From Apostichopus japonicus (lineage: Eukaryota > Echinodermata > Holothuroidea > Aspidochirotida > Stichopodidae), in NCBI RefSeq assembly GCF_037975245.1, contig NC_092582.1, positions 1,014,001 to 1,078,000 of the forward strand: a stretch of 64,000 bases of DNA, in the 5' to 3' direction. Shown here piece after piece: positions 2 to 39,862 of the stretch. Below the pieces are notes generated by a model. It saw only the letters and a program-made list of their open reading frames with translations. It had not been told where the DNA came from and did not search any database. Position 1 is the stretch's first letter. Each line of letters opens with the position of its first letter. The position numbers were made by a program, and so were the translations under genes.

Positions 2-2271
2 AAGTTAAAAATCCTGATTACATTTTTCAAGAAGAAAGCAAACAGGAAGTGGACTTGGATAAGTCCAGACAGAGCGACAAAGAATGAAATTGATTTTATC
101 CTTTCATCAGATCTAAACATTGTCAAGGACGTAAATGTTCTCAACAAAGTCAACATAGGCAGCGACCACAGAATGGTAATGGGGAAGTTTCAAATCAACA
201 CTAAGTTAGAGAGACAGAAGCTACTTAGACCAAAGTATAGCAACATTAACCTACACAAACTCACAGAAAGAAACCATGAATTCCAACTGGAACTAGCAAA
301 CAAGTTTGGTAAACTTAACGACGAGTGGAGAGAGCAAGATCTAGACACATGGAACCAAGAGACAATAGACATCATTCAAGAAACTGCACTCAATGTAGCA
401 GGCAGGAAACCCAAAGACAGAGTTAGCAAACTATCAGTCAGCACAAGGAAACTGATTGGAAAACGTAGACAGATGAAGATGGACAGTCAAGGTACTGACA
501 ACATAGAGTACAGGGAAACCTGCAAAACTATCAAGAAGAAGATACGTGAGGATGTCAGAAACTACAACACCAAAATGATACATGACACAATAGAAAAAAA
601 CAGGAGTATTAAGAAAACCAACAAGAAGCTTGGCCAGGGAACAAAGAAAATCAATAAACTTCTGGACTCAAATGGGCAGGAAATAACAGACCAGGATGAT
701 ATTCTGCGGAGAATAGAGAAATTTTATGAAGAACTATACCAAAGCAATCAGCAAACCGGAGACATAGATGATTCTCAGGAGAAAGTACCTAAAGTTGAAT
801 GCTGGGAAGTAGAATATGCTTTAAGCCAAATGAAACGGGGCAAGGCCCTGGACAGGACAACATAATGATGGACACACTAAAAGAAACAGGGGATGCAGTT
901 AATAAGGAACTGGCAAAGCTCTTCACAGCTTGTCTTCACCAAGGGAAGGTGCCTCAAAAGTGGAAAGATGCCAACATGATAATATTGCACAAAAAAGGAG
1001 ACAAAAGGGACTTGAAGAACTACCGGCCCATTAGCCTTCTTTCCAATATATACAAGCTTTTTACAAAGATTCTGACAAACAGACTGGAAAGACTTCTAGA
1101 CGACAACCAACCAAGGTCCCAGGCGGGATTCAGAAGAAATTTCTCAACAATAGATCACATTCACACCCTCAACCAACTGAAGGAAAAATGTCAAGAGTTC
1201 GAGTATGTGTCACTTTCGTGGACTATGAGAAAGCTTTCGATTCCGTTGAAACCTGGGCAGTGCTCGAGGCACTGAAAGAGCAAGACATCAACCCTAACTA
1301 CATCAAAGTAATCAAAGACATCTATACTGGCAGCACAACTACTGTTAAGTTACATAAAGAAAGCAACAAAATACCAATAAGGAAAGGAGTGAGGCAGGGA
1401 GATACCATATCTCCAAAGCTCTTTACAGCATGCTTAGAACACATCTTCAAAGACATCAATTGGGAAGATAAAGGTATCAATGTGAATGGGGAGAAGCTCA
1501 ACCACCTCCGTTTTGCTGATGATATAGTCATAATAGCTAACAACTTCAACGAAATGGAGAGCATGCTACAGGACTTGGATATAGCAAGCAGGAAAAGAGG
1601 ACTGAAAATGAATATGAAGAAGACCAAAGTAATGGCAGACCAATCAGTTAAACACAAACCAATCATCATTAATGGAACAGAATTGGAACATGTATCTGAA
1701 TACATTTACCTGGGACAAAGGTTCACTCTCACCGAAAGGAATCAAGATAATGAAATAAGGAGGAAGATCAAAGCAGGGTGGCAAGCATTTGGCAGATACA
1801 GCCACATCATGAAGGGCAATCTACCGTTATGCTTAAAAAGGAAAGTGTATGACCAATGCATCCTCCCATCAATGACATATGGACACTAACAATTAAAATG
1901 GAAAGAAAGTTAGCAGCCGCACAACATAACATGTAGAGGAGTATGCTTAACATAACATACAAAGATCACAAAACCAATAAGTGGATAAGGGAACAGACAA
2001 AGTTACAGGATATAATGGAAGTAATCAAACATCGTAAATGGACATGGGCCGGCAATGTCACTAGAAGGGGAGATGGAAGATGGAGCACGCTAACCACTGT
2101 ATGGACACCGCTTGACGGGAAAAGGAACAGAGGCAGGCAAAGAAAGAGATGGAGAGATGAAATACAGAAATTCTGGAATGAAACCAATTGGTACACACAT
2201 GCAAGGGAGAGAGAGAGAGTTGGAGATATCATGCTGAGGCCTTCATCCAGCAGTGGATCGACAACGGCTGA
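2..2271 (+). pseudogene. RTE-like non-LTR retrotransposon (LINE), 5'-truncated by the window edge, frameshifted
   Basis: This is a dead LINE polyprotein copying RNA into DNA at a nicked target. Seen: the first open frame (2-865) begins inside the C-terminal part of an AP-type endonuclease (NEIDFIL, then GSDHR near 150-170). Reverse transcriptase follows: KNYRPISLLSN and QAGFR in the second frame, then FVDYEKAFDSV (motif A, about 1215-1247), RKGVRQGDTISP (motif B) and FADD (catalytic motif C, 1512-1523) in the third. A C-terminal block with KWTWAGNV and RGRQRKRWRDEI sits in a fourth frame. The ending FIQQWIDNG plus TGA lies at about 2242-2271 in yet another frame. At least four frameshifts (near 850, 1190, 1890-1940 and 2220) separate these blocks, so it cannot make an intact protein. 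The C-terminal block is typical of RTE/BovB-type elements; the clade call is from motif memory. Confidence 0.85.
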
Positions 2272-2285
2272 AGAAGAAGATACTA

Positions 2286-3690
2286 ATATTAGTGGAAGAA
2301 CAATGTTGTACTTATGTCTGATGTTTGATGTACTAATAATACCGCCAGTACTATGATGTACTAATGTATGATTTACTAATGATACCGCCAGAACTATGAT
2401 GTACTAATGTATGACGAATTGTGTACTAATGTACGATGCATGATGCACTAATGATACAGCAAGTACTATGATGTACTACTGTATGATGTATTTCGCACTA
2501 ATGTATGATGTACTAATGAAACAGACAGTACAATGATGTACCAATGTATGACGTATGATGTACTAATGCTATTGCCAGTACTATGATGTACTAATATATG
2601 ATGTATTGCGCACTAATGTATGATGTACTAATGAAACAGACAGTATAATGATGTGCTAATGTATGATGTATGATGTACTAATGCTACCGCCAGTACTATG
2701 ATGTACTAATGATACCGCCAGAACTATGATGTACTAATGTATGACGAATTGTGTACTGATGTACGATGTATGATGTACTAATGAAACAGACAGTACAATG
2801 ATGTACCAATGTATGACGTATGATGTACTAATGATACCGCCAGTACCATGATGTACTAATGTTTGATTAATAATGTACCAATGAAACAGACAGTACAATG
2901 ATGTGCTAATGTATGATGTATGATGTACTAATGCTACCGCCAGTACTATGATGTACTAATGATACCGCCAGAACTATTAGGTACTTATGTATGATTTACT
3001 AATGATACCGCCAGAACTATTAGGTACTTATGTATGACGAATTGTGTACTAATGTAGGATGCATGATGCACTAATGATACAGCAAGTACTATGATGTACT
3101 AATGTATGATGTATTGCGCACTGATGTATGATGTAATAATGAAACAGACAGTACAATGATGTACTAATGTTGATGTATGATGTACTAATGATACTAACAG
3201 CATTATGATGTACTAATGAATGATGTACTAGCACTGCATGTACAATGTTGTACTCATATATGATGTACTAACGATACCGCTAATACAAGGATGCACTTAT
3301 GTATGAGGTATGATGTAATAATGATACCGCCAGAACTATGACGTACTAATGTATGATTTATGATATCATAATGACACTGCCAGTACTATGATGTAATAAT
3401 GTATATAATATGATGTACTAATCATACTACCAATACAATAATGTACCAATGTATGATGAATGATGTGCTGATGGTACTACTAGTACTATGATGTAGGCAT
3501 GTATGATGCGTGATTTATGATCTACTAATGATAATATCAGTATTATGCTGTACTAATATATGATGTATGATGTAATAATGATACTACCAGTATTATGGTG
3601 TACCAATGTATGATGTATGATTTACTAATGATACCGCCAGTACTTTGATGTTCTAATCTATAGTGTACTTATGTATGATGCACTTATGTT
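2286..3690. repeat. Degenerate minisatellite directly 3' of the LINE
   Basis: About 1.4 kb of imperfect tandem repeats built from ATGATGTACTAATG and GATACCGCCAGTACT blocks, with a higher-order variant carrying GAAACAGACAGTA. Units vary by indels, so there is no single exact period. It begins about 15 bp after the LINE stop codon. RTE-type LINEs commonly end in short tandem repeats, so expansion from the LINE tail is likely (inference). Confidence 0.85.
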
Positions 3691-9366: not shown

Positions 9367-9407
9367 CTATTGAACGAGAAGACGAATCTTATTTTGACGT
9401 ATTTCTC

Positions 9408-9997
9408 ACCATTAATACCTCACCATTTCATTTAATGATACCTCACCATTGATACCTCACCATTTCCTTCTAATGATACCTCACCATTTATACCTCACCA
9501 TTTCCTTTAATGATACCTCAACATTAATACCTCACCATTTCTTTCTAATGATACCTTACCATTGATACCTCATCATTTCTTACTAATGATACCTCACCAT
9601 TGATACCTCACCATTTCCTTCTGATGATACCTCACCATTTATAAATCACCATTTCCTTTAATGATACCTCAACATTAATACCTCACCATTTCTTTCTAAT
9701 GATACCTTACCATTGATACCTCATCATTTCTTACTAATGATACCTCACCATTGATACCTCACCATTTCTTTCTAATGTTACCTCACCATTTATACCTCAC
9801 CATTTCCTTTAATGATACCTCAACATTAATACCTCACCATTTCTTTCTAATGATACCTAACCGTTGATACCTCATCATTTCTTAGTAATGATACCTCACC
9901 GTTGATACCTCAACATTTTTATCTAATGATACCTCACCAATTATACCTCACCATTTCTATCTAATGATGCCTCACCAATTATACCTCACCATTTCTT
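9408..9997. repeat. Minisatellite in intron 1 of gene 1
   Basis: About 590 bp of imperfect tandem repeats with a period near 39 bp, built from two half-units: ATACCTCACCATT and ATTTCTTTCTAATG. Higher-order similarity is visible about every 120-160 bp. Confidence 0.9.
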
Positions 9998-24284: not shown

Positions 24285-25591
24285 CTGAATATATACAAAT
24301 ATAAAGTAACAATCAAAATATTATGCAAACAGCCAGTTTTTAGACTGATAAGTCACATGAAGAGTTTTTCGTCACAACCTCGAGTGTGTAGTGTTACGTC
24401 AAATATGCATGATATGACCACTCCACAATACATGCCTTTCATACAGATACACCACTGACATGTACAGGTTTTCAAAGGTGGGCTTGATAATCCTAATCCC
24501 ACAACTACCCTACTGATTTCGGTAGGGGCCTGAACCGTTATTAAACGAGCGTCATGAGCCTGTAGGAGTTATCTATATTTTACCAAAAGATATGCTAAAA
24601 CTCCTGGGACTTTAACCCCACTGACGATGACCCTCACTGACTATTCTTTGTACCCCCGATGAAGTTTTGACCCCACTGACGATGAAGGTGAGGCCTTGTC
24701 AAGCCCCCACCCCATGTCCTCTTGTACACGCCACGGAATTACAAGCTATATACCTATAATTCTATACGCAGATCATTCTATCAGATTTATGCTCAATATT
24801 TTAAAGCAGCATTTTGCGTTGGGTCGCTTTTTTCCACTTTTTTAACATGTGCATCGATTTTTTTACATGTATCAATCATAAAACAGCAATCTAAGATACC
24901 ATCCAAGTTTCACCCTGCCAAGAGCGTTAATTAGCGAGTACTTAACGATTTATGTCGATAAATGAGAAGAGTGTCCTCGACAAATTTCACAGTTAAAATT
25001 AATCGCATACAATTCCGCCAAACCCACTAGTTTGAATTCAACCAATCAGAGATGCAGGTTTAGTTATGAGCCGTTGCTAAAAATAGATTCAAGACTTCGC
25101 GTTGGTTGTACCAGGGAGTTGTTATGCAACTCCCTGGTACAACTGCCATATAGACTGTACACAAATCAAGCGTGGTGTTATATTACGTATCTGTCAATGA
25201 CGTTCGTAGTGTTTAAATATTCATATTATGGGCGAGGTTTATTGGGTTCCCAACGGAAAATATCTTGCAGAACAACAAAGTTGAAAGTTGCAATTTTTTC
25301 GACTTTTATGCCACCATTTGAAGTAAAATATAAATAGATTAGCTAGTTATGTATGTCGTTATGGCAAAGTGGAATCAGTGAGGTTGAGAAAAATCATAGA
25401 AAAGGACGCAAAATGCTGCTTTAATACATCTCATTAGTATCTAAAATCGAAATCCAAAATGGTTAGATTATAAACCAAAGTATACACCGAATTCATTTGC
25501 CATTTTTTTTATTTTTTGCTACCTCCAAAATTATATGATTACAGACAACATTTGTGTAGCTCGTGGTATTTGTATTTTGGTATTTTGGTAT
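24285..25591. other. Intron sequence between the CCP exon and the tandem array
   Basis: About 1.3 kb without a recognised exon. It holds a perfect hairpin at 25,105-25,143 and ends in a short run of TATTTTGG repeats (about 25,566-25,591) directly abutting the array. Confidence 0.5.
25105..25143. repeat. Perfect 17-bp hairpin
   Basis: Arms GTTGTACCAGGGAGTTG and its exact complement are separated by five bases (TTATG). It is not followed by a T-run terminator. It is probably the tip of a palindromic element. Confidence 0.85.
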
Positions 25592-25951
25592 TTCGAACCA
25601 CGGGCCTCCCGCTCTGTACGCGGACACCCTAACCACTAGGCTATGGACGCTGATTGTATGTCCAGAGGTTCGAAAACCGGTAAGGAAGATCGCAATTCCA
25701 CTGTAGGCGTTTGTCACCTATATCGAACAATACTAGTTCTGTTTTTGGTGACATATTTTGCCCTACTCTAGAGATCAAACTGATGCTATCCAACTCGAAA
25801 ATCATTTGTGATTCCTAAAGCCGGATCTCGAAAGAGATACTTTGAACAGACTTTATGTTAATGCAATGGAGGTAAACGACAAAGGCAAATGAATATATAT
25901 AAATGAAAATCGTAATGAGTTGGAAAATCAAGAACAGTGAAAAAACTTTCA

Positions 25952-26023
25952 GCCTCCACCGGGATTCGAACCACGGGCCTCCCGCTCTGTACGCGGACAC
26001 CCTAACCACTAGGCTATGGACGC
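25952..26023 (-). tRNA. tRNA-like module, first complete minus-strand copy of 20
   Basis: Same sequence as the module described at 33,380-33,451. Further minus-strand copies follow every 373 bp up to 33,039-33,110. One more copy at the left edge lacks its last 13 nt. Confidence 0.5.
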
Positions 26024-29000
26024 TGATTGTATGTCCAGAGGTTCGAAAACCGGTAAGGAAGATCGCAATTCCACTGTAGGCGTTTGTCACCTATATCGAA
26101 CAATACTAGTTCTGTTTTTGGTGACATATTTTGCCCTACTCTAGAGATCAAACTGATGCTATCCAACTCGAAAATCATTTGTGATTCCTAAAGCCGGATC
26201 TCGAAAGAGATACTTTGAACAGACTTTATGTTAATGCAATGGAGGTAAACGACAAAGGCAAATGAATATATATAAATGAAAATCGTAATGAGTTGGAAAA
26301 TCAAGAACAGTGAAAAAACTTTCAGCCTCCACCGGGATTCGAACCACGGGCCTCCCGCTCTGTACGCGGACACCCTAACCACTAGGCTATGGACGCTGAT
26401 TGTATGTCCAGAGGTTCGAAAACCGGTAAGGAAGATCGCAATTCCACTGTAGGCGTTTGTCACCTATATCGAACAATACTAGTTCTGTTTTTGGTGACAT
26501 ATTTTGCCCTACTCTAGAGATCAAACTGATGCTATCCAACTCGAAAATCATTTGTGATTCCTAAAGCCGGATCTCGAAAGAGATACTTTGAACAGACTTT
26601 ATGTTAATGCAATGGAGGTAAACGACAAAGGCAAATGAATATATATAAATGAAAATCGTAATGAGTTGGAAAATCAAGAACAGTGAAAAAACTTTCAGCC
26701 TCCACCGGGATTCGAACCACGGGCCTCCCGCTCTGTACGCGGACACCCTAACCACTAGGCTATGGACGCTGATTGTATGTCCAGAGGTTCGAAAACCGGT
26801 AAGGAAGATCGCAATTCCACTGTAGGCGTTTGTCACCTATATCGAACAATACTAGTTCTGTTTTTGGTGACATATTTTGCCCTACTCTAGAGATCAAACT
26901 GATGCTATCCAACTCGAAAATCATTTGTGATTCCTAAAGCCGGATCTCGAAAGAGATACTTTGAACAGACTTTATGTTAATGCAATGGAGGTAAACGACA
27001 AAGGCAAATGAATATATATAAATGAAAATCGTAATGAGTTGGAAAATCAAGAACAGTGAAAAAACTTTCAGCCTCCACCGGGATTCGAACCACGGGCCTC
27101 CCGCTCTGTACGCGGACACCCTAACCACTAGGCTATGGACGCTGATTGTATGTCCAGAGGTTCGAAAACCGGTAAGGAAGATCGCAATTCCACTGTAGGC
27201 GTTTGTCACCTATATCGAACAATACTAGTTCTGTTTTTGGTGACATATTTTGCCCTACTCTAGAGATCAAACTGATGCTATCCAACTCGAAAATCATTTG
27301 TGATTCCTAAAGCCGGATCTCGAAAGAGATACTTTGAACAGACTTTATGTTAATGCAATGGAGGTAAACGACAAAGGCAAATGAATATATATAAATGAAA
27401 ATCGTAATGAGTTGGAAAATCAAGAACAGTGAAAAAACTTTCAGCCTCCACCGGGATTCGAACCACGGGCCTCCCGCTCTGTACGCGGACACCCTAACCA
27501 CTAGGCTATGGACGCTGATTGTATGTCCAGAGGTTCGAAAACCGGTAAGGAAGATCGCAATTCCACTGTAGGCGTTTGTCACCTATATCGAACAATACTA
27601 GTTCTGTTTTTGGTGACATATTTTGCCCTACTCTAGAGATCAAACTGATGCTATCCAACTCGAAAATCATTTGTGATTCCTAAAGCCGGATCTCGAAAGA
27701 GATACTTTGAACAGACTTTATGTTAATGCAATGGAGGTAAACGACAAAGGCAAATGAATATATATAAATGAAAATCGTAATGAGTTGGAAAATCAAGAAC
27801 AGTGAAAAAACTTTCAGCCTCCACCGGGATTCGAACCACGGGCCTCCCGCTCTGTACGCGGACACCCTAACCACTAGGCTATGGACGCTGATTGTATGTC
27901 CAGAGGTTCGAAAACCGGTAAGGAAGATCGCAATTCCACTGTAGGCGTTTGTCACCTATATCGAACAATACTAGTTCTGTTTTTGGTGACATATTTTGCC
28001 CTACTCTAGAGATCAAACTGATGCTATCCAACTCGAAAATCATTTGTGATTCCTAAAGCCGGATCTCGAAAGAGATACTTTGAACAGACTTTATGTTAAT
28101 GCAATGGAGGTAAACGACAAAGGCAAATGAATATATATAAATGAAAATCGTAATGAGTTGGAAAATCAAGAACAGTGAAAAAACTTTCAGCCTCCACCGG
28201 GATTCGAACCACGGGCCTCCCGCTCTGTACGCGGACACCCTAACCACTAGGCTATGGACGCTGATTGTATGTCCAGAGGTTCGAAAACCGGTAAGGAAGA
28301 TCGCAATTCCACTGTAGGCGTTTGTCACCTATATCGAACAATACTAGTTCTGTTTTTGGTGACATATTTTGCCCTACTCTAGAGATCAAACTGATGCTAT
28401 CCAACTCGAAAATCATTTGTGATTCCTAAAGCCGGATCTCGAAAGAGATACTTTGAACAGACTTTATGTTAATGCAATGGAGGTAAACGACAAAGGCAAA
28501 TGAATATATATAAATGAAAATCGTAATGAGTTGGAAAATCAAGAACAGTGAAAAAACTTTCAGCCTCCACCGGGATTCGAACCACGGGCCTCCCGCTCTG
28601 TACGCGGACACCCTAACCACTAGGCTATGGACGCTGATTGTATGTCCAGAGGTTCGAAAACCGGTAAGGAAGATCGCAATTCCACTGTAGGCGTTTGTCA
28701 CCTATATCGAACAATACTAGTTCTGTTTTTGGTGACATATTTTGCCCTACTCTAGAGATCAAACTGATGCTATCCAACTCGAAAATCATTTGTGATTCCT
28801 AAAGCCGGATCTCGAAAGAGATACTTTGAACAGACTTTATGTTAATGCAATGGAGGTAAACGACAAAGGCAAATGAATATATATAAATGAAAATCGTAAT
28901 GAGTTGGAAAATCAAGAACAGTGAAAAAACTTTCAGCCTCCACCGGGATTCGAACCACGGGCCTCCCGCTCTGTACGCGGACACCCTAACCACTAGGCTA

Positions 29001-32000
29001 TGGACGCTGATTGTATGTCCAGAGGTTCGAAAACCGGTAAGGAAGATCGCAATTCCACTGTAGGCGTTTGTCACCTATATCGAACAATACTAGTTCTGTT
29101 TTTGGTGACATATTTTGCCCTACTCTAGAGATCAAACTGATGCTATCCAACTCGAAAATCATTTGTGATTCCTAAAGCCGGATCTCGAAAGAGATACTTT
29201 GAACAGACTTTATGTTAATGCAATGGAGGTAAACGACAAAGGCAAATGAATATATATAAATGAAAATCGTAATGAGTTGGAAAATCAAGAACAGTGAAAA
29301 AACTTTCAGCCTCCACCGGGATTCGAACCACGGGCCTCCCGCTCTGTACGCGGACACCCTAACCACTAGGCTATGGACGCTGATTGTATGTCCAGAGGTT
29401 CGAAAACCGGTAAGGAAGATCGCAATTCCACTGTAGGCGTTTGTCACCTATATCGAACAATACTAGTTCTGTTTTTGGTGACATATTTTGCCCTACTCTA
29501 GAGATCAAACTGATGCTATCCAACTCGAAAATCATTTGTGATTCCTAAAGCCGGATCTCGAAAGAGATACTTTGAACAGACTTTATGTTAATGCAATGGA
29601 GGTAAACGACAAAGGCAAATGAATATATATAAATGAAAATCGTAATGAGTTGGAAAATCAAGAACAGTGAAAAAACTTTCAGCCTCCACCGGGATTCGAA
29701 CCACGGGCCTCCCGCTCTGTACGCGGACACCCTAACCACTAGGCTATGGACGCTGATTGTATGTCCAGAGGTTCGAAAACCGGTAAGGAAGATCGCAATT
29801 CCACTGTAGGCGTTTGTCACCTATATCGAACAATACTAGTTCTGTTTTTGGTGACATATTTTGCCCTACTCTAGAGATCAAACTGATGCTATCCAACTCG
29901 AAAATCATTTGTGATTCCTAAAGCCGGATCTCGAAAGAGATACTTTGAACAGACTTTATGTTAATGCAATGGAGGTAAACGACAAAGGCAAATGAATATA
30001 TATAAATGAAAATCGTAATGAGTTGGAAAATCAAGAACAGTGAAAAAACTTTCAGCCTCCACCGGGATTCGAACCACGGGCCTCCCGCTCTGTACGCGGA
30101 CACCCTAACCACTAGGCTATGGACGCTGATTGTATGTCCAGAGGTTCGAAAACCGGTAAGGAAGATCGCAATTCCACTGTAGGCGTTTGTCACCTATATC
30201 GAACAATACTAGTTCTGTTTTTGGTGACATATTTTGCCCTACTCTAGAGATCAAACTGATGCTATCCAACTCGAAAATCATTTGTGATTCCTAAAGCCGG
30301 ATCTCGAAAGAGATACTTTGAACAGACTTTATGTTAATGCAATGGAGGTAAACGACAAAGGCAAATGAATATATATAAATGAAAATCGTAATGAGTTGGA
30401 AAATCAAGAACAGTGAAAAAACTTTCAGCCTCCACCGGGATTCGAACCACGGGCCTCCCGCTCTGTACGCGGACACCCTAACCACTAGGCTATGGACGCT
30501 GATTGTATGTCCAGAGGTTCGAAAACCGGTAAGGAAGATCGCAATTCCACTGTAGGCGTTTGTCACCTATATCGAACAATACTAGTTCTGTTTTTGGTGA
30601 CATATTTTGCCCTACTCTAGAGATCAAACTGATGCTATCCAACTCGAAAATCATTTGTGATTCCTAAAGCCGGATCTCGAAAGAGATACTTTGAACAGAC
30701 TTTATGTTAATGCAATGGAGGTAAACGACAAAGGCAAATGAATATATATAAATGAAAATCGTAATGAGTTGGAAAATCAAGAACAGTGAAAAAACTTTCA
30801 GCCTCCACCGGGATTCGAACCACGGGCCTCCCGCTCTGTACGCGGACACCCTAACCACTAGGCTATGGACGCTGATTGTATGTCCAGAGGTTCGAAAACC
30901 GGTAAGGAAGATCGCAATTCCACTGTAGGCGTTTGTCACCTATATCGAACAATACTAGTTCTGTTTTTGGTGACATATTTTGCCCTACTCTAGAGATCAA
31001 ACTGATGCTATCCAACTCGAAAATCATTTGTGATTCCTAAAGCCGGATCTCGAAAGAGATACTTTGAACAGACTTTATGTTAATGCAATGGAGGTAAACG
31101 ACAAAGGCAAATGAATATATATAAATGAAAATCGTAATGAGTTGGAAAATCAAGAACAGTGAAAAAACTTTCAGCCTCCACCGGGATTCGAACCACGGGC
31201 CTCCCGCTCTGTACGCGGACACCCTAACCACTAGGCTATGGACGCTGATTGTATGTCCAGAGGTTCGAAAACCGGTAAGGAAGATCGCAATTCCACTGTA
31301 GGCGTTTGTCACCTATATCGAACAATACTAGTTCTGTTTTTGGTGACATATTTTGCCCTACTCTAGAGATCAAACTGATGCTATCCAACTCGAAAATCAT
31401 TTGTGAGTCCTAAAGCCGGATCTCGAAAGAGATACTTTGAACAGACTTTATGTTAATGCAATGGAGGTAAACGACAAAGGCAAATGAATATATATAAATG
31501 AAAATCGTAATGAGTTGGAAAATCAAGAACAGTGAAAAAACTTTCAGCCTCCACCGGGATTCGAACCACGGGCCTCCCGCTCTGTACGCGGACACCCTAA
31601 CCACTAGGCTATGGACGCTGATTGTATGTCCAGAGGTTCGAAAACCGGTAAGGAAGATCGCAATTCCACTGTAGGCGTTTGTCACCTATATCGAACAATA
31701 CTAGTTCTGTTTTTGGTGACATATTTTGCCCTACTCTAGAGATCAAACTGATGCTATCCAACTCGAAAATCATTTGTGATTCCTAAAGCCGGATCTCGAA
31801 AGAGATACTTTGAACAGACTTTATGTTAATGCAATGGAGGTAAACGACAAAGGCAAATGAATATATATAAATGAAAATCGTAATGAGTTGGAAAATCAAG
31901 AACAGTGAAAAAACTTTCAGCCTCCACCGGGATTCGAACCACGGGCCTCCCGCTCTGTACGCGGACACCCTAACCACTAGGCTATGGACGCTGATTGTAT

Positions 32001-33026
32001 GTCCAGAGGTTCGAAAACCGGTAAGGAAGATCGCAATTCCACTGTAGGCGTTTGTCACCTATATCGAACAATACTAGTTCTGTTTTTGGTGACATATTTT
32101 GCCCTACTCTAGAGATCAAACTGATGCTATCCAACTCGAAAATCATTTGTGATTCCTAAAGCCGGATCTCGAAAGAGATACTTTGAACAGACTTTATGTT
32201 AATGCAATGGAGGTAAACGACAAAGGCAAATGAATATATATAAATGAAAATCGTAATGAGTTGGAAAATCAAGAACAGTGAAAAAACTTTCAGCCTCCAC
32301 CGGGATTCGAACCACGGGCCTCCCGCTCTGTACGCGGACACCCTAACCACTAGGCTATGGACGCTGATTGTATGTCCAGAGGTTCGAAAACCGGTAAGGA
32401 AGATCGCAATTCCACTGTAGGCGTTTGTCACCTATATCGAACAATACTAGTTCTGTTTTTGGTGACATATTTTGCCCTACTCTAGAGATCAAACTGATGC
32501 TATCCAACTCGAAAATCATTTGTGATTCCTAAAGCCGGATCTCGAAAGAGATACTTTGAACAGACTTTATGTTAATGCAATGGAGGTAAACGACAAAGGC
32601 AAATGAATATATATAAATGAAAATCGTAATGAGTTGGAAAATCAAGAACAGTGAAAAAACTTTCAGCCTCCACCGGGATTCGAACCACGGGCCTCCCGCT
32701 CTGTACGCGGACACCCTAACCACTAGGCTATGGACGCTGATTGTATGTCCAGAGGTTCGAAAACCGGTAAGGAAGATCGCAATTCCACTGTAGGCGTTTG
32801 TCACCTATATCGAACAATACTAGTTCTGTTTTTGGTGACATATTTTGCCCTACTCTAGAGATCAAACTGATGCTATCCAACTCGAAAATCATTTGTGATT
32901 CCTAAAGCCGGATCTCGAAAGAGATACTTTGAACAGACTTTATGTTAATGCAATGGAGGTAAACGACAAAGGCAAATGAATATATATAAATGAAAATCGT
33001 AATGAGTTGGAAAATCAAGAACAGTG

Positions 33027-33032
33027 AAAAAA
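33027..33032 (-). terminator. Pol III-type T6 terminator (representative minus-strand unit)
   Basis: Six T residues on the minus strand, 6 nt after the tRNA-like module ending at 33,039. The same run recurs in every complete unit. Confidence 0.6.
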
Positions 33033-33038
33033 CTTTCA

Positions 33039-33110
33039 GCCTCCACCGGGATTCGAACCACGGGCCTCCCGCTCTGTACGCGGACACCCTAACCACTAGG
33101 CTATGGACGC
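33039..33110 (-). tRNA. tRNA-like module, last minus-strand copy
   Basis: The copy nearest the inversion on its left side; identical to the module at 33,380. It is transcribed leftward, away from the plus-strand copies. Confidence 0.5.
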
Positions 33111-33379
33111 TGATTGTATGTCCAGAGGTTCGAAAACCGGTAAGGAAGATCGCAATTCCACTGTAGGCGTTTGTCACCTATATCGAACAATACTAGTTCT
33201 GTTTTTGGTGACATATTTTGCCCTACTCTAGAGATCAAACTGATGCTATCCAACTCGAAAATCATTTGTGATTCCTAAAGCCGGATCTCGAAAGAGATAC
33301 TTTGAACAGACTTTATGTTAATGCAATGGAGGTATTGCGATCTTCCTTACCGGTTTTCGAACCTCTGGACATACAATCA

Positions 33380-33451
33380 GCGTCCATAGCCTAGTGGTTA
33401 GGGTGTCCGCGTACAGAGCGGGAGGCCCGTGGTTCGAATCCCGGTGGAGGC
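33380..33451 (+). tRNA. tRNA-like Pol III module, first plus-strand copy
   Basis: The 72 nt fold as a cloverleaf with 6 of 7 acceptor pairs (G3:G70 mismatched) and a D arm GCCT/GGGT closing the loop AGTGGTTA. The anticodon stem TCCGC/GCGGG is fully paired, counting one G:U. The anticodon loop GTACAGA has T33 and would read ACA (Cys codon UGU), which is not a normal eukaryotic anticodon. The T arm has the standard TTCGAAT loop, but its stem pairs only with a bulged T or two mismatches. The A box TAGCCTAGTGG and B box GGTTCGAATCC (33,431-33,441) match Pol III consensus. A T6 run follows. It resembles tRNA-derived SINE heads more than a working tRNA, but could still be transcribed. Confidence 0.5.
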
Positions 33452-33457
33452 TGAAAG

Positions 33458-33463
33458 TTTTTT
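33458..33463 (+). terminator. Pol III-type T6 terminator
   Basis: TTTTTT 6 nt after the tRNA-like module at 33,380-33,451, where Pol III would stop. Confidence 0.6.
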
Positions 33464-33752
33464 CACTGTTCTTGATTTTCCAACTCATTACGATTTTCAT
33501 TTATATATATTCATTTGCCTTTGTCGTTTACCTCCATTGCATTAACATAAAGTCTGTTCAAAGTATCTCTTTCGAGATCCGGCTTTAGGAATCACAAATG
33601 ATTTTCGAGTTGGATAGCATCAGTTTGATCTCTAGAGTAGGGCAAAATATGTCACCAAAAACAGAACTAGTATTGTTCGATATAGGTGACAAACGCCTAC
33701 AGTGGAATTGCGATCTTCCTTACCGGTTTTCGAACCTCTGGACATACAATCA

Positions 33753-33824
33753 GCGTCCATAGCCTAGTGGTTAGGGTGTCCGCGTACAGAGCGGGAGGCC
33801 CGTGGTTCGAATCCCGGTGGAGGC
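33753..33824 (+). tRNA. tRNA-like Pol III module, second plus-strand copy
   Basis: Exactly 373 bp after the first plus-strand copy and identical to it, with the same T6 run downstream. Its unit is cut about 100 bp further on by the (TA)n tract. Confidence 0.5.
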
Positions 33825-33925
33825 TGAAAGTTTTTTCACTGTTCTTGATTTTCCAACTCATTACGATTTTCATTTATATATATTCATTTGCCTTTGTCGT
33901 TTACCTCCATTGCATTAACATAAAA

Positions 33926-39124: not shown

Positions 39125-39862
39125 GAGGAATTTCAGATATCTTGAAATCATTTCAGATATCTCAAATTAAATTACAGATATCTCCAATTTATTTAAGATA
39201 TCTACAAATAATTGCAGATATCTTAAATTCAATTTCAGATATCTCGAAATACCAGAGATTTTCAGATATCTCGAAATACCAGAGAATTTCAGATATCTGA
39301 AATTAAATTCGAGATATCCGAAATTGAATTCGAGATATCCGAAATTAAATTCGAGAAATCTGAAACTGAATCCAAGATATCTGCAATTCTATTTCAGATA
39401 TCTGAAATAGAATTTCAGATATCTCGAATTCAATTTCAGATATCTGATATAGAATTTCAGATATCTGAAAATTACCGATTTAATGTTAAAATGGCTTTCC
39501 ATTCGTGCCATTTTAACATTTGATCGGGAAATTCTGCATATGCATTTCAGATATCTGGAATTCAATTGCAGATATCTCGAATTCAATTTCAGATATCTCG
39601 AATTAGAATTGCAGATATCTTGAATTCAATTTCAGATATCTCGAATTCAATTACGCATATCTCGAAATCTATTTTAGATATCTCTAATTCAATTTCAGAT
39701 ATCTGAAATGAAATTTCAGATATCTCGAATTAAATTTCACATATCTCGAATTTAATTTCGGATATCTCGAAATCTATTCAAGATATCTCGAATTAAATTT
39801 CACATATCTGAAATAGAATTTTAGATATCTAAAATAAGAAACAATTTAAGATATCTAAAATT
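39125..39862. repeat. Self-complementary GATATC minisatellite
   Basis: About 740 bp of a roughly 20-bp unit, ATTTCAGATATCTCGAATTC, where both TTTCAGATATCTGAAA and GAATTC are palindromes. More than 30 AGATATC sites are present. The array is interrupted near 39,475-39,535 by a hairpin with arms AATGTTAAAATGG and its complement; the same motif marks its right end (39,865-39,890). It is absent from duplication copy 2. Confidence 0.92.

What the first reader, a model, noticed from the sequence alone, without database searches (positions are those of the whole stretch)
25592..33925. Intronic 373-bp tandem array of Pol III-type tRNA-like units
Twenty-two complete tRNA-like modules, each with A box, perfect B box and a T6 terminator, repeat at exactly 373 bp inside an intron of a secreted-protein gene. 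Known tRNA clusters and SINE satellites exist, but a homogeneous array with an ACA anticodon loop and a defective T stem is unusual. It could be a SINE-derived satellite, an expressed small-RNA cluster, or a chromatin boundary built from Pol III sites. A-box and B-box matches are seen directly; transcription is inference.
Basis: partly seen in the sequence, partly recalled or inferred. Interest (0 to 1): 0.85.

Follow-up and report, generated by a model that had tools for sequence, protein, structure and literature searches.

The report
Self-tandemising tRNA-bearing element in TA repeats
The array is a recent insertion of a small non-coding mobile element that carries a tRNA-like piece, enters TA-repeat tracts across the genome in the manner of Penelope-type retrotransposons, and seems to be written into the chromosome as many copies of one RNA at once, probably because that RNA is circular.

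Summary
The array is real: 22 tRNA-like modules, period 373 bp, window 25592-33924.

It is not a local tRNA cluster. The unit is a dispersed non-coding element with many near-identical copies. About 1,500 junctions share one 3' end (unit base 58) in (TA)n tracts. 5' ends vary, and lengths run from about 22 nt to more than 17 units. Head-to-head pairs carry a second outer end 32-41 nt further on, like the 'tail' of Penelope-like elements (PLEs; PMC11167929, PMC3846280). A PLE family of this genome ends in (TA)n in the same way.

In several arrays, the window's included, private or rare variants occur in every covering unit, twice in both arms. These arrays came from one template sequence. I read this as reiterative, probably rolling-circle, reverse transcription of a circular RNA by a PLE enzyme. 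The element resembles metazoan retrozymes but has no recognisable hammerhead and carries a tRNA. PLE mobilisation is well supported; the RNA circle and the tRNA's role are inferred.

The parts
25592..33334 (-). Minus-strand arm: about 20.8 units of 373 bp. Left end at unit base 359 (inside the tRNA T arm), inner end at unit base 77. Unit numbering: base 1 = first base after the tRNA, tRNA = 301-373.
33331..33924 (+). Plus-strand arm: partial unit (252-373), one full unit, then bases 1-99. Outer end at unit base 99 (the 'tail' end), abutting an AT tract.
33331..33334 (.). Head-to-head junction with a 4-nt overlap (microhomology)
25950..33111 (-). 20 tRNA-like modules at exact 373-bp spacing (first 25950-26024, last 33037-33111)
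33379..33453 (+). tRNA-like module 21
33752..33826 (+). tRNA-like module 22
33458..33463 (+). TTTTTT run (unit bases 6-11), a Pol III terminator-like run, repeated in the other units
   Evidence: direct reading
33875..33883 (+). TATATATAT (unit bases 50-58): the inferred priming motif, 3' end of most insertions examined genome-wide; repeated in the other units
33884..33924 (+). 'Tail', unit bases 59-99, present at this outer end; alternative 3' end seen in head-to-head pairs
   Evidence: PMC11167929, PMC3846280
33925..33960 (.). (AT)n microsatellite, read as what remains of the insertion target
31407..31407 (-). The only SNP in the 19 full minus-strand units

Best explanation
The array is one insertion of a non-autonomous, non-coding retroelement of 373-nt unit length, mobilised by the RT/GIY-YIG enzyme of a Penelope-like element. 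Shown from sequence: insertion into (TA)n tracts; a mostly fixed 3' end at the TATATATAT motif of the unit; variable 5' ends; head-to-head pairs in which an outer end carries a 32-41 nt tail; variants common to all units of several arrays. Inferred: the PLE enzyme cuts both strands of a TA tract. A TA end pairs with UAUAUAUAU in the unit RNA (or starts at the tail site) and is extended. The template is a single closed RNA circle, so the enzyme can go round it many times before it stops, giving a head-to-tail array. Extension from both DNA ends on the same RNA gives the head-to-head pair, joined by microhomology. In this window one side went round about 20 times and the other about 1.6 times. 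The tRNA-like module is probably a captured SINE head. Its role (promoter, RNA stability or processing) is unknown.
For: Dispersal: 1,500 3' junctions with up to 1 mismatch against 1 for the backwards pattern. The opposite polarity (TA tract joined to the 5' side of the same motif) gives 111, which argues for a single-stranded template of one sense; the two patterns may be conserved to different degrees in old copies, and this was not corrected. Target: of 38 loci chosen by unit similarity, 35 have a TA run within 30 nt of the 3' end and 33 within 30 nt of the other outer end; background is 0.35% of 30-mers in this window outside the array. Lengths run on through the unit boundary: 12 of 58 de-duplicated insertions exceed one unit by the script. 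Tail: 12 of 13 head-to-head loci in the two samples have an outer end at unit base 90-99. PMC11167929 reports that a PLE protein cuts and extends both strands and starts reverse transcription at two adjacent sites that define an optional 30-40 bp tail; PMC3846280 reports a 31-bp tail optionally present at one of the inverted pLTRs and head-to-head as the most frequent inverted form. Partner: a PLE family (RVT_1 + GIY-YIG) with 17 of 55 listed matches covering residues 25-835 without a stop; 14 of its 3' ends were examined, all in (TA)n, 13 at the same base. A 60-nt stretch of its pseudo-LTR resembles unit 75-134 (1 of 300 shuffles as good). Single template: variants seen at one locus only and in all covering units at L030 (2/2), L049 (5/5), L052 (2/2), L066 (2/2, a 5-nt deletion), L093 (2/2), L099 (2/2); variants shared with few other loci in all covering units at L038 (5/5), L045 (5/5) and the window (22 and 23 covering stretches, both arms); L050 shares one across both arms.
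Against: No RNA data: neither circle nor transcript is shown. No self-cleaving ribozyme found in the unit (Rfam up to E 10; core-motif scan), so how a circle would form is unexplained. [quoted passage not shown] PMC3846280 explains head-to-head copies by self-priming on an antisense template, not by my model. Some arrays have variants in two or more but not all units: L033, L058, L059 and L023 (a TA insertion in 3 of 8 full units, in the zone 46-62 that one search left out); a single-unit circle does not predict these. In L022 bases 59-108 of one unit are replaced by a TA tract, i.e. two insertions or a broken junction. The 5'-end hotspot near unit base 100 (105 against 9 on the reverse strand; about fourfold after correcting for anchor conservation; 9 of 58 against 4.4 expected in the sample, p 0.028, window chosen after seeing the data) could be the 5' end of a linear RNA. 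The excess of 5' ends inside the tRNA in the first sample (8 of 31, p 0.0003) was not seen in the second (4 of 58, expected 3.4). L028, L030 and L032 have no TA run at the 3' end, and the left end of the window array is not in a TA tract. Sequence similarity between unit and PLE is short. LINE partners were not searched for.
Confidence: 0.62

Rival explanations
1. Same element and same PLE machinery, but the template is a linear multimeric transcript of an existing array (as proposed for PLEs), not a circle. Daughter arrays copy consecutive units of the parent.
For: PMC11167929 proposes multimeric PLE mRNA and finds unprocessed RNA to be the main substrate in vitro. Arrays with variants in some units only: L033, L058, L059, L023. 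The tandem PLE pair C12:16803227-16808802 shows that this genome's PLE forms tandems.
Against: Variants present in all covering units of several arrays need a further homogenising step, or a parent array that was already uniform.
Confidence: 0.24
2. Satellite spread through DNA: extrachromosomal circles or unequal crossing-over, with re-integration into TA tracts by microhomology.
For: Homogeneous arrays, circle-like behaviour, 4-nt junction overlap.
Against: A double-stranded circle predicts both junction polarities at the palindromic TA motif; 1,500 against 111 were seen. A mostly fixed 3' end with variable 5' end, 5'-truncated copies down to about 22 nt, and the PLE-like tail are features of reverse transcription.
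Confidence: 0.08
3. A conventional tRNA SINE moved by a LINE, with twin priming producing the inverted arms.
For: tRNA head; 5' truncation; TA-ended 3' tail.
Against: T6 directly after the tRNA should end a Pol III transcript before the body (general knowledge). The array L066 lacks part of the B box in both covering units. The second end at bases 90-99, the TA target and the matching ends of a resident PLE point to a PLE. LINE partners were not searched for.
Confidence: 0.05
4. A locally amplified Pol III cluster or boundary with a host function.
For: tRNA modules scoring well above the Rfam gathering score.
Against: About 1,500 dispersed junctions; array homogeneity explained by recent insertion; opposite orientations inside one array.
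Confidence: 0.02

Closest known systems
Metazoan non-LTR retrozymes (Cervera and de la Pena 2020, PMC7229834; one sixth of the text, discussion and passages read)
   Same: Non-coding units of about 170-400 nt in tandem arrays (dimers up to 62-mers in one coral); proposed life cycle of circular RNA copied by another element's RT, with PLEs named as a strong candidate.
   Different: No type I hammerhead found here; a tRNA module instead; a (TA)n target with a mostly fixed start and a PLE-like tail; a candidate partner PLE in the same genome.
Penelope-like elements, Penelope/Poseidon type (PMC11167929, parts 1-2 of 4 read; PMC3846280, passages read)
   Same: AT-rich target, 5' truncation, tandem and head-to-head pseudo-LTR pairs, optional 30-40 bp tail.
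   Different: No ORF. In this genome the start site resembles the TA target (PMC11167929 reports a start site not homologous to the cut DNA). Longer homogeneous tandems than the partial tandems described in those passages.
tRNA-derived SINEs (general knowledge)
   Same: tRNA head, non-autonomous, 5'-truncated copies.
   Different: Terminator-like run right after the tRNA; multimeric insertions; PLE-type rather than LINE-type signature.
Sm-alpha SINE-like elements of schistosomes (recalled, not searched)
   Same: tRNA-type promoter within a short tandem-prone element.
   Different: Those carry a hammerhead ribozyme; not compared by sequence.

Membership tests
Metazoan retrozyme | Type I hammerhead ribozyme in the unit | tested here: not met
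   Rfam up to E 10 finds only tRNA; CUGANGA core with at most 1 mismatch absent on the sense strand, one imperfect antisense site. Rfam also did not call the hammerhead-like motif of the resident PLE up to E 5, so the Rfam negative alone is weak.
Metazoan retrozyme | Short tandem units of about 150-450 bp, no ORF, dispersed | tested here: met
Metazoan retrozyme | Circular RNA in cells | not testable with these tools
   no RNA data
PLE-mobilised element | Tail of 30-40 bp at an end of inverted copies | tested here: met
   12 of 13 head-to-head loci have an outer end at bases 90-99 against the usual 58
PLE-mobilised element | Shared target and end structure with a resident PLE | tested here: met
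   14 PLE 3' ends examined of 55 listed matches: 14 in (TA)n, 13 at the same base
PLE-mobilised element | Sequence shared with the PLE's RT start or binding region | tested here: inconclusive
   60-nt similarity, 1 of 300 shuffles as good, but its place relative to the start site differs
Autonomous PLE | RT and GIY-YIG ORF in the unit | tested here: not met
   373-bp unit; no frame of at least 110 aa inside the array
tRNA SINE | tRNA-related head | tested here: met
   A and B boxes by direct reading
tRNA SINE | Pol III transcript spans the mobile unit | tested here: inconclusive
   T6 at unit bases 6-11 (direct reading) predicts early termination; transcription itself not testable
Functional tRNA gene cluster | Canonical cloverleaf with a decoding anticodon | tested here: inconclusive
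   47.2 bits, one mismatched acceptor pair, one inserted U in the T stem; ACA reads UGU, while eukaryotic tRNA-Cys normally has GCA (recalled)

The most novel reading that the evidence does not exclude
A new kind of PLE-dependent retroelement that uses a tRNA-like module in place of a ribozyme to obtain a circular RNA, and that is written into TA tracts by rolling-circle reverse transcription from both DNA ends on one RNA molecule. That would be a natural route by which a single retrotransposition event creates a ready-made satellite array of more than 20 units.
Probability: 0.28. Interest if true: 0.85.

Novelty: new variant of a known kind. Interest (0 to 1): 0.63.

Why it matters
How short tandem arrays appear already multimerised, and which autonomous element moves retrozyme-like repeats, are open questions: PMC7761336 states that metazoan retrozymes show no conserved motif from which to deduce the autonomous partner (passages read). 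Here the element and a resident PLE share target, end structure and tail signature, and dozens of near-identical insertions examined here record template, start site, direction and stop site. That makes rolling-circle reverse transcription testable in vitro with one protein and one 373-nt RNA. It also suggests a one-step route from mobile element to satellite DNA.

Tried and rejected
Local Pol III cluster or boundary: rejected after the genome search showed a dispersed family. Hammerhead or other known ribozyme in the unit: not found. An antisense near-match (CTGATGC) depends on a 1-nt difference of the window copy from the majority of other loci and was dropped. Hammerhead-like letters in the PLE pseudo-LTR were read by eye; Rfam did not call them, the RNA fold gave no support, and the motif is absent from the window with up to 3 mismatches. 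End-to-end template jumping on linear monomers: disfavoured because the sample-1 units listed show no deletion or insertion at bases 97-105, apart from L022, where a TA tract replaces bases 59-108; sample 2 was not checked for this. Excess of stops inside the tRNA: seen in sample 1 (31 of 38 loci, values entered by hand, three adjusted by eye), not in sample 2, so not used. DNA search with unit bases 1-60 returned nothing, probably because common words are skipped. Papers: the listings (15 of 21 shown; 8 of 8; 15 of 75; 15 of 101; 12 of 200; 6 of 12; 3 of 3) show no title or abstract start that describes a PLE-mobilised tRNA-bearing tandem element; this covers only the held library and the rows shown.

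Full report
Observation. Window 25592-33924 holds 22 tRNA-like modules in 373-bp units. Twenty lie on the minus strand and two on the plus strand; the arms meet head to head with a 4-nt overlap at 33331-33334. Of 19 full minus-strand units 18 are identical and one has a single SNP. I number the unit from the first base after the tRNA (base 1); the tRNA is 301-373, T6 is 6-11 and TATATATAT is 50-58.

The unit is not local. A DNA search of the window's own assembly (G000, 671.6 Mb, 35 contigs) scored 39 of 1507 first-look candidates and gave 195 matches on many contigs; most of the full-length matches shown outside the window are 98-99% identical. I fetched 38 other loci. In most of them the array ends at base 58 and then continues as (TA)n, while the 5' end varies. 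A TA run lies within 30 nt of the 3' end in 35 of 38 (not L028, L030, L032) and of the other outer end in 33 of 38 (not L040, L043, L046, L049, L058); in this window outside the array 0.35% of 30-mers hold such a run. The window array has it on the right but not on the left.

Genome-wide counts. The junction of base 58 to TA occurs 1,500 times (742 + 758) with at most 1 mismatch; the backwards-pattern control gives 1. This count includes segmental duplicates. The opposite polarity occurs 111 times. A double-stranded circle joining by microhomology would give both polarities, so the asymmetry points to copying of one sense strand from a TA primer; I did not correct for different conservation of the two patterns. 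A tail junction at bases 97-99 occurs 29 times on the forward strand with an exact pattern.

Second sample. I took the first 60 new junctions on contigs C1-C3 of the 100 that one search printed, leaving out those already in hand. The 3' TA flank is built into this sample. Two loci (L091, L094) are segmental duplicates of L089 by their flanks and were dropped, leaving 58. By the script, lengths run from 22 to 971 nt and 12 of 58 exceed one unit; L107, broken by an internal gap, would be a 13th. 5' ends are enriched at bases 84-111 (9 of 58, expected 4.4, p 0.028; window chosen after seeing the data). The genome-wide anchor comparison gave 105 against 9 on the reverse strand, where matches are not repeated (576 against 79 on the forward strand, where they are). 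Anchor conservation differs (22 of 26 against 14 of 46), so the true excess is about fourfold. This may be a linear RNA end or a block to the enzyme. 5' ends at bases 1-58 are also in excess (17 of 58, expected 9.0, p 0.006), i.e. many short insertions.

Head-to-head pairs. In the first sample plus the window, 9 of 39 loci are head to head (window, L021, L024, L028, L035, L037, L039, L040, L050). In the second sample it is 4 of 58 (L062, L069, L075, L088). In L039 and L040 the second arm is only about 20 nt long; in L021 and L069 a TA tract lies between the arms. In 12 of these 13 an outer end lies at base 90-99, i.e. 32-41 nt beyond the usual end; the exception is L021 with both ends at 58. 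L029, L048 and L072 have old, diverged inverted pieces nearby (84-91%) and were not counted. L140, fetched in part, has 5 full minus and at least 12 full plus units, with one SNP among these 17, and its left end at base 58 in TA. PMC11167929 (parts 1 and 2 of 4 read) shows that a Penelope-like protein cuts and extends both strands and starts reverse transcription at two neighbouring internal sites that define an optional 30-40 bp tail. [quoted passage not shown] PMC3846280 (passages read) describes a 31-bp tail optionally present at one of the inverted pseudo-LTRs and head-to-head as the most frequent inverted form, which it explains by self-priming on an antisense template. The match in length and placement of the tail is the main reason to name a PLE.

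A partner in the same genome. A GIY-YIG search scored 150 of 626 candidates and gave 37 matches. One lies in an 835-aa frame with RVT_1 and GIY-YIG whose start runs into (TA)n. Searching with it gave 55 listed matches, 17 of which cover residues 25-835 without a stop. I examined 14 ends after the ORF: all lie in (TA)n and 13 of them at the same base; L139 ends earlier. In copies followed by another PLE copy the same place reads on through a TA-like motif (L125, L126, L130). So both elements start where their RNA resembles the target. A 60-nt stretch of the PLE's pseudo-LTR resembles unit 75-134 (score 29; 1 of 300 shuffles as good; antisense control 22), but its place relative to the start site differs. 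An old copy of the unit (about 78%) lies about 200 bp beyond the end of the L123 PLE.

One template per array. One search printed 36 loci with two or more units and any variant; bases 46-62 were left out. In 15 of the 36 at least one variant is in all covering units. Six of these carry a variant seen at no other locus in hand: L030, L049, L052, L066, L093, L099. L038 and L045 carry a variant seen in one other locus in 5 of 5 units. The window carries two variants, seen in 2 and 4 loci, in all covering stretches of both arms, and L050 shares one variant between its arms. The other shared variants are at least partly subfamily states found in up to 28 loci. An inserted T in a short T run of the window units was placed in two ways by the aligner; I do not count it. 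Against this, L033, L058 and L059 have variants in two or more but not all units, and L023 has a TA insertion in 3 of 8 full units. No unit listed has a deletion or insertion at bases 97-105, except that in L022 a TA tract replaces bases 59-108. These facts fit repeated passage round one closed RNA better than end-to-end jumping, and better than faithful copying of a multimer, unless the parent array was already uniform.

The tRNA module. It scores 47.2 bits but has an extra U in the T stem. From general knowledge, T6 directly after it should end a Pol III transcript at about 84 nt, so Pol III from this promoter does not explain a 373-nt template. In L066 both covering units lack the same 5 nt of the B box, so that deletion was probably present in the template RNA. 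The tRNA may be a captured SINE head; its present role is unknown.

Comparison. PMC7229834 (one sixth of the text, discussion and passages read) describes metazoan retrozymes: about 170-400 nt, tandem, with type I hammerheads, made into circles, with PLEs suggested as movers. PMC7761336 (passages read) says no motif in the repeats helps to deduce the partner. The present element works like a retrozyme in my reading, but fails the hammerhead test, so I do not file it as one. It is best called a PLE-mobilised, tRNA-bearing, retrozyme-like element.

Certainty by step. Dispersed element with TA target and mostly fixed 3' end: about 0.97. Moved by reverse transcription: about 0.92. By a PLE enzyme: about 0.85. 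Array made in one event from one template sequence: about 0.72. Template a circle: about 0.55. tRNA needed for circle formation: about 0.2.

Noticed in passing
window 24796-25429: Inverted repeat arms of 24 nt (92% complementary) 586 nt apart, ending about 160 bp left of the array: looks like a MITE.
   Followed up: partly
window 1035-1886: Reverse transcriptase fragment (RVT_1, E 8.5e-25).
   Followed up: no
window 2314-3661, 9405-9997, 39129-39830: Other tandem arrays with short, less uniform units.
   Followed up: no
L033, L058, L059, L023: Arrays in which variants recur in some units but not all; may mean a multi-unit template or later conversion.
   Followed up: partly
L022:876-1228: A TA tract replaces unit bases 59-108 between two parts of the array: perhaps two insertions into one TA tract.
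   Followed up: no
L120:2360-2444: A different TA-ended element shares the 3' half of the tRNA module (73%): perhaps a related family using the same machinery.
   Followed up: no
L123, L124, L125, L127-L129, L131-L139: These PLE 3' regions carry a hammerhead-like stretch by eye (CTGAAGA, short stem, GAAA) that Rfam did not call in L123, the only one of them scanned.
   Followed up: partly
L140 (G000:C2:23245700-23252700): A second very long head-to-head array, at least 17 full units with one SNP among them; its right end was not fetched.
   Followed up: partly
L105 and G000:C2:22059303: A unit insertion and a PLE copy lie within about 1 kb of each other; co-location in the same TA-rich stretch may be common.
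   Followed up: no
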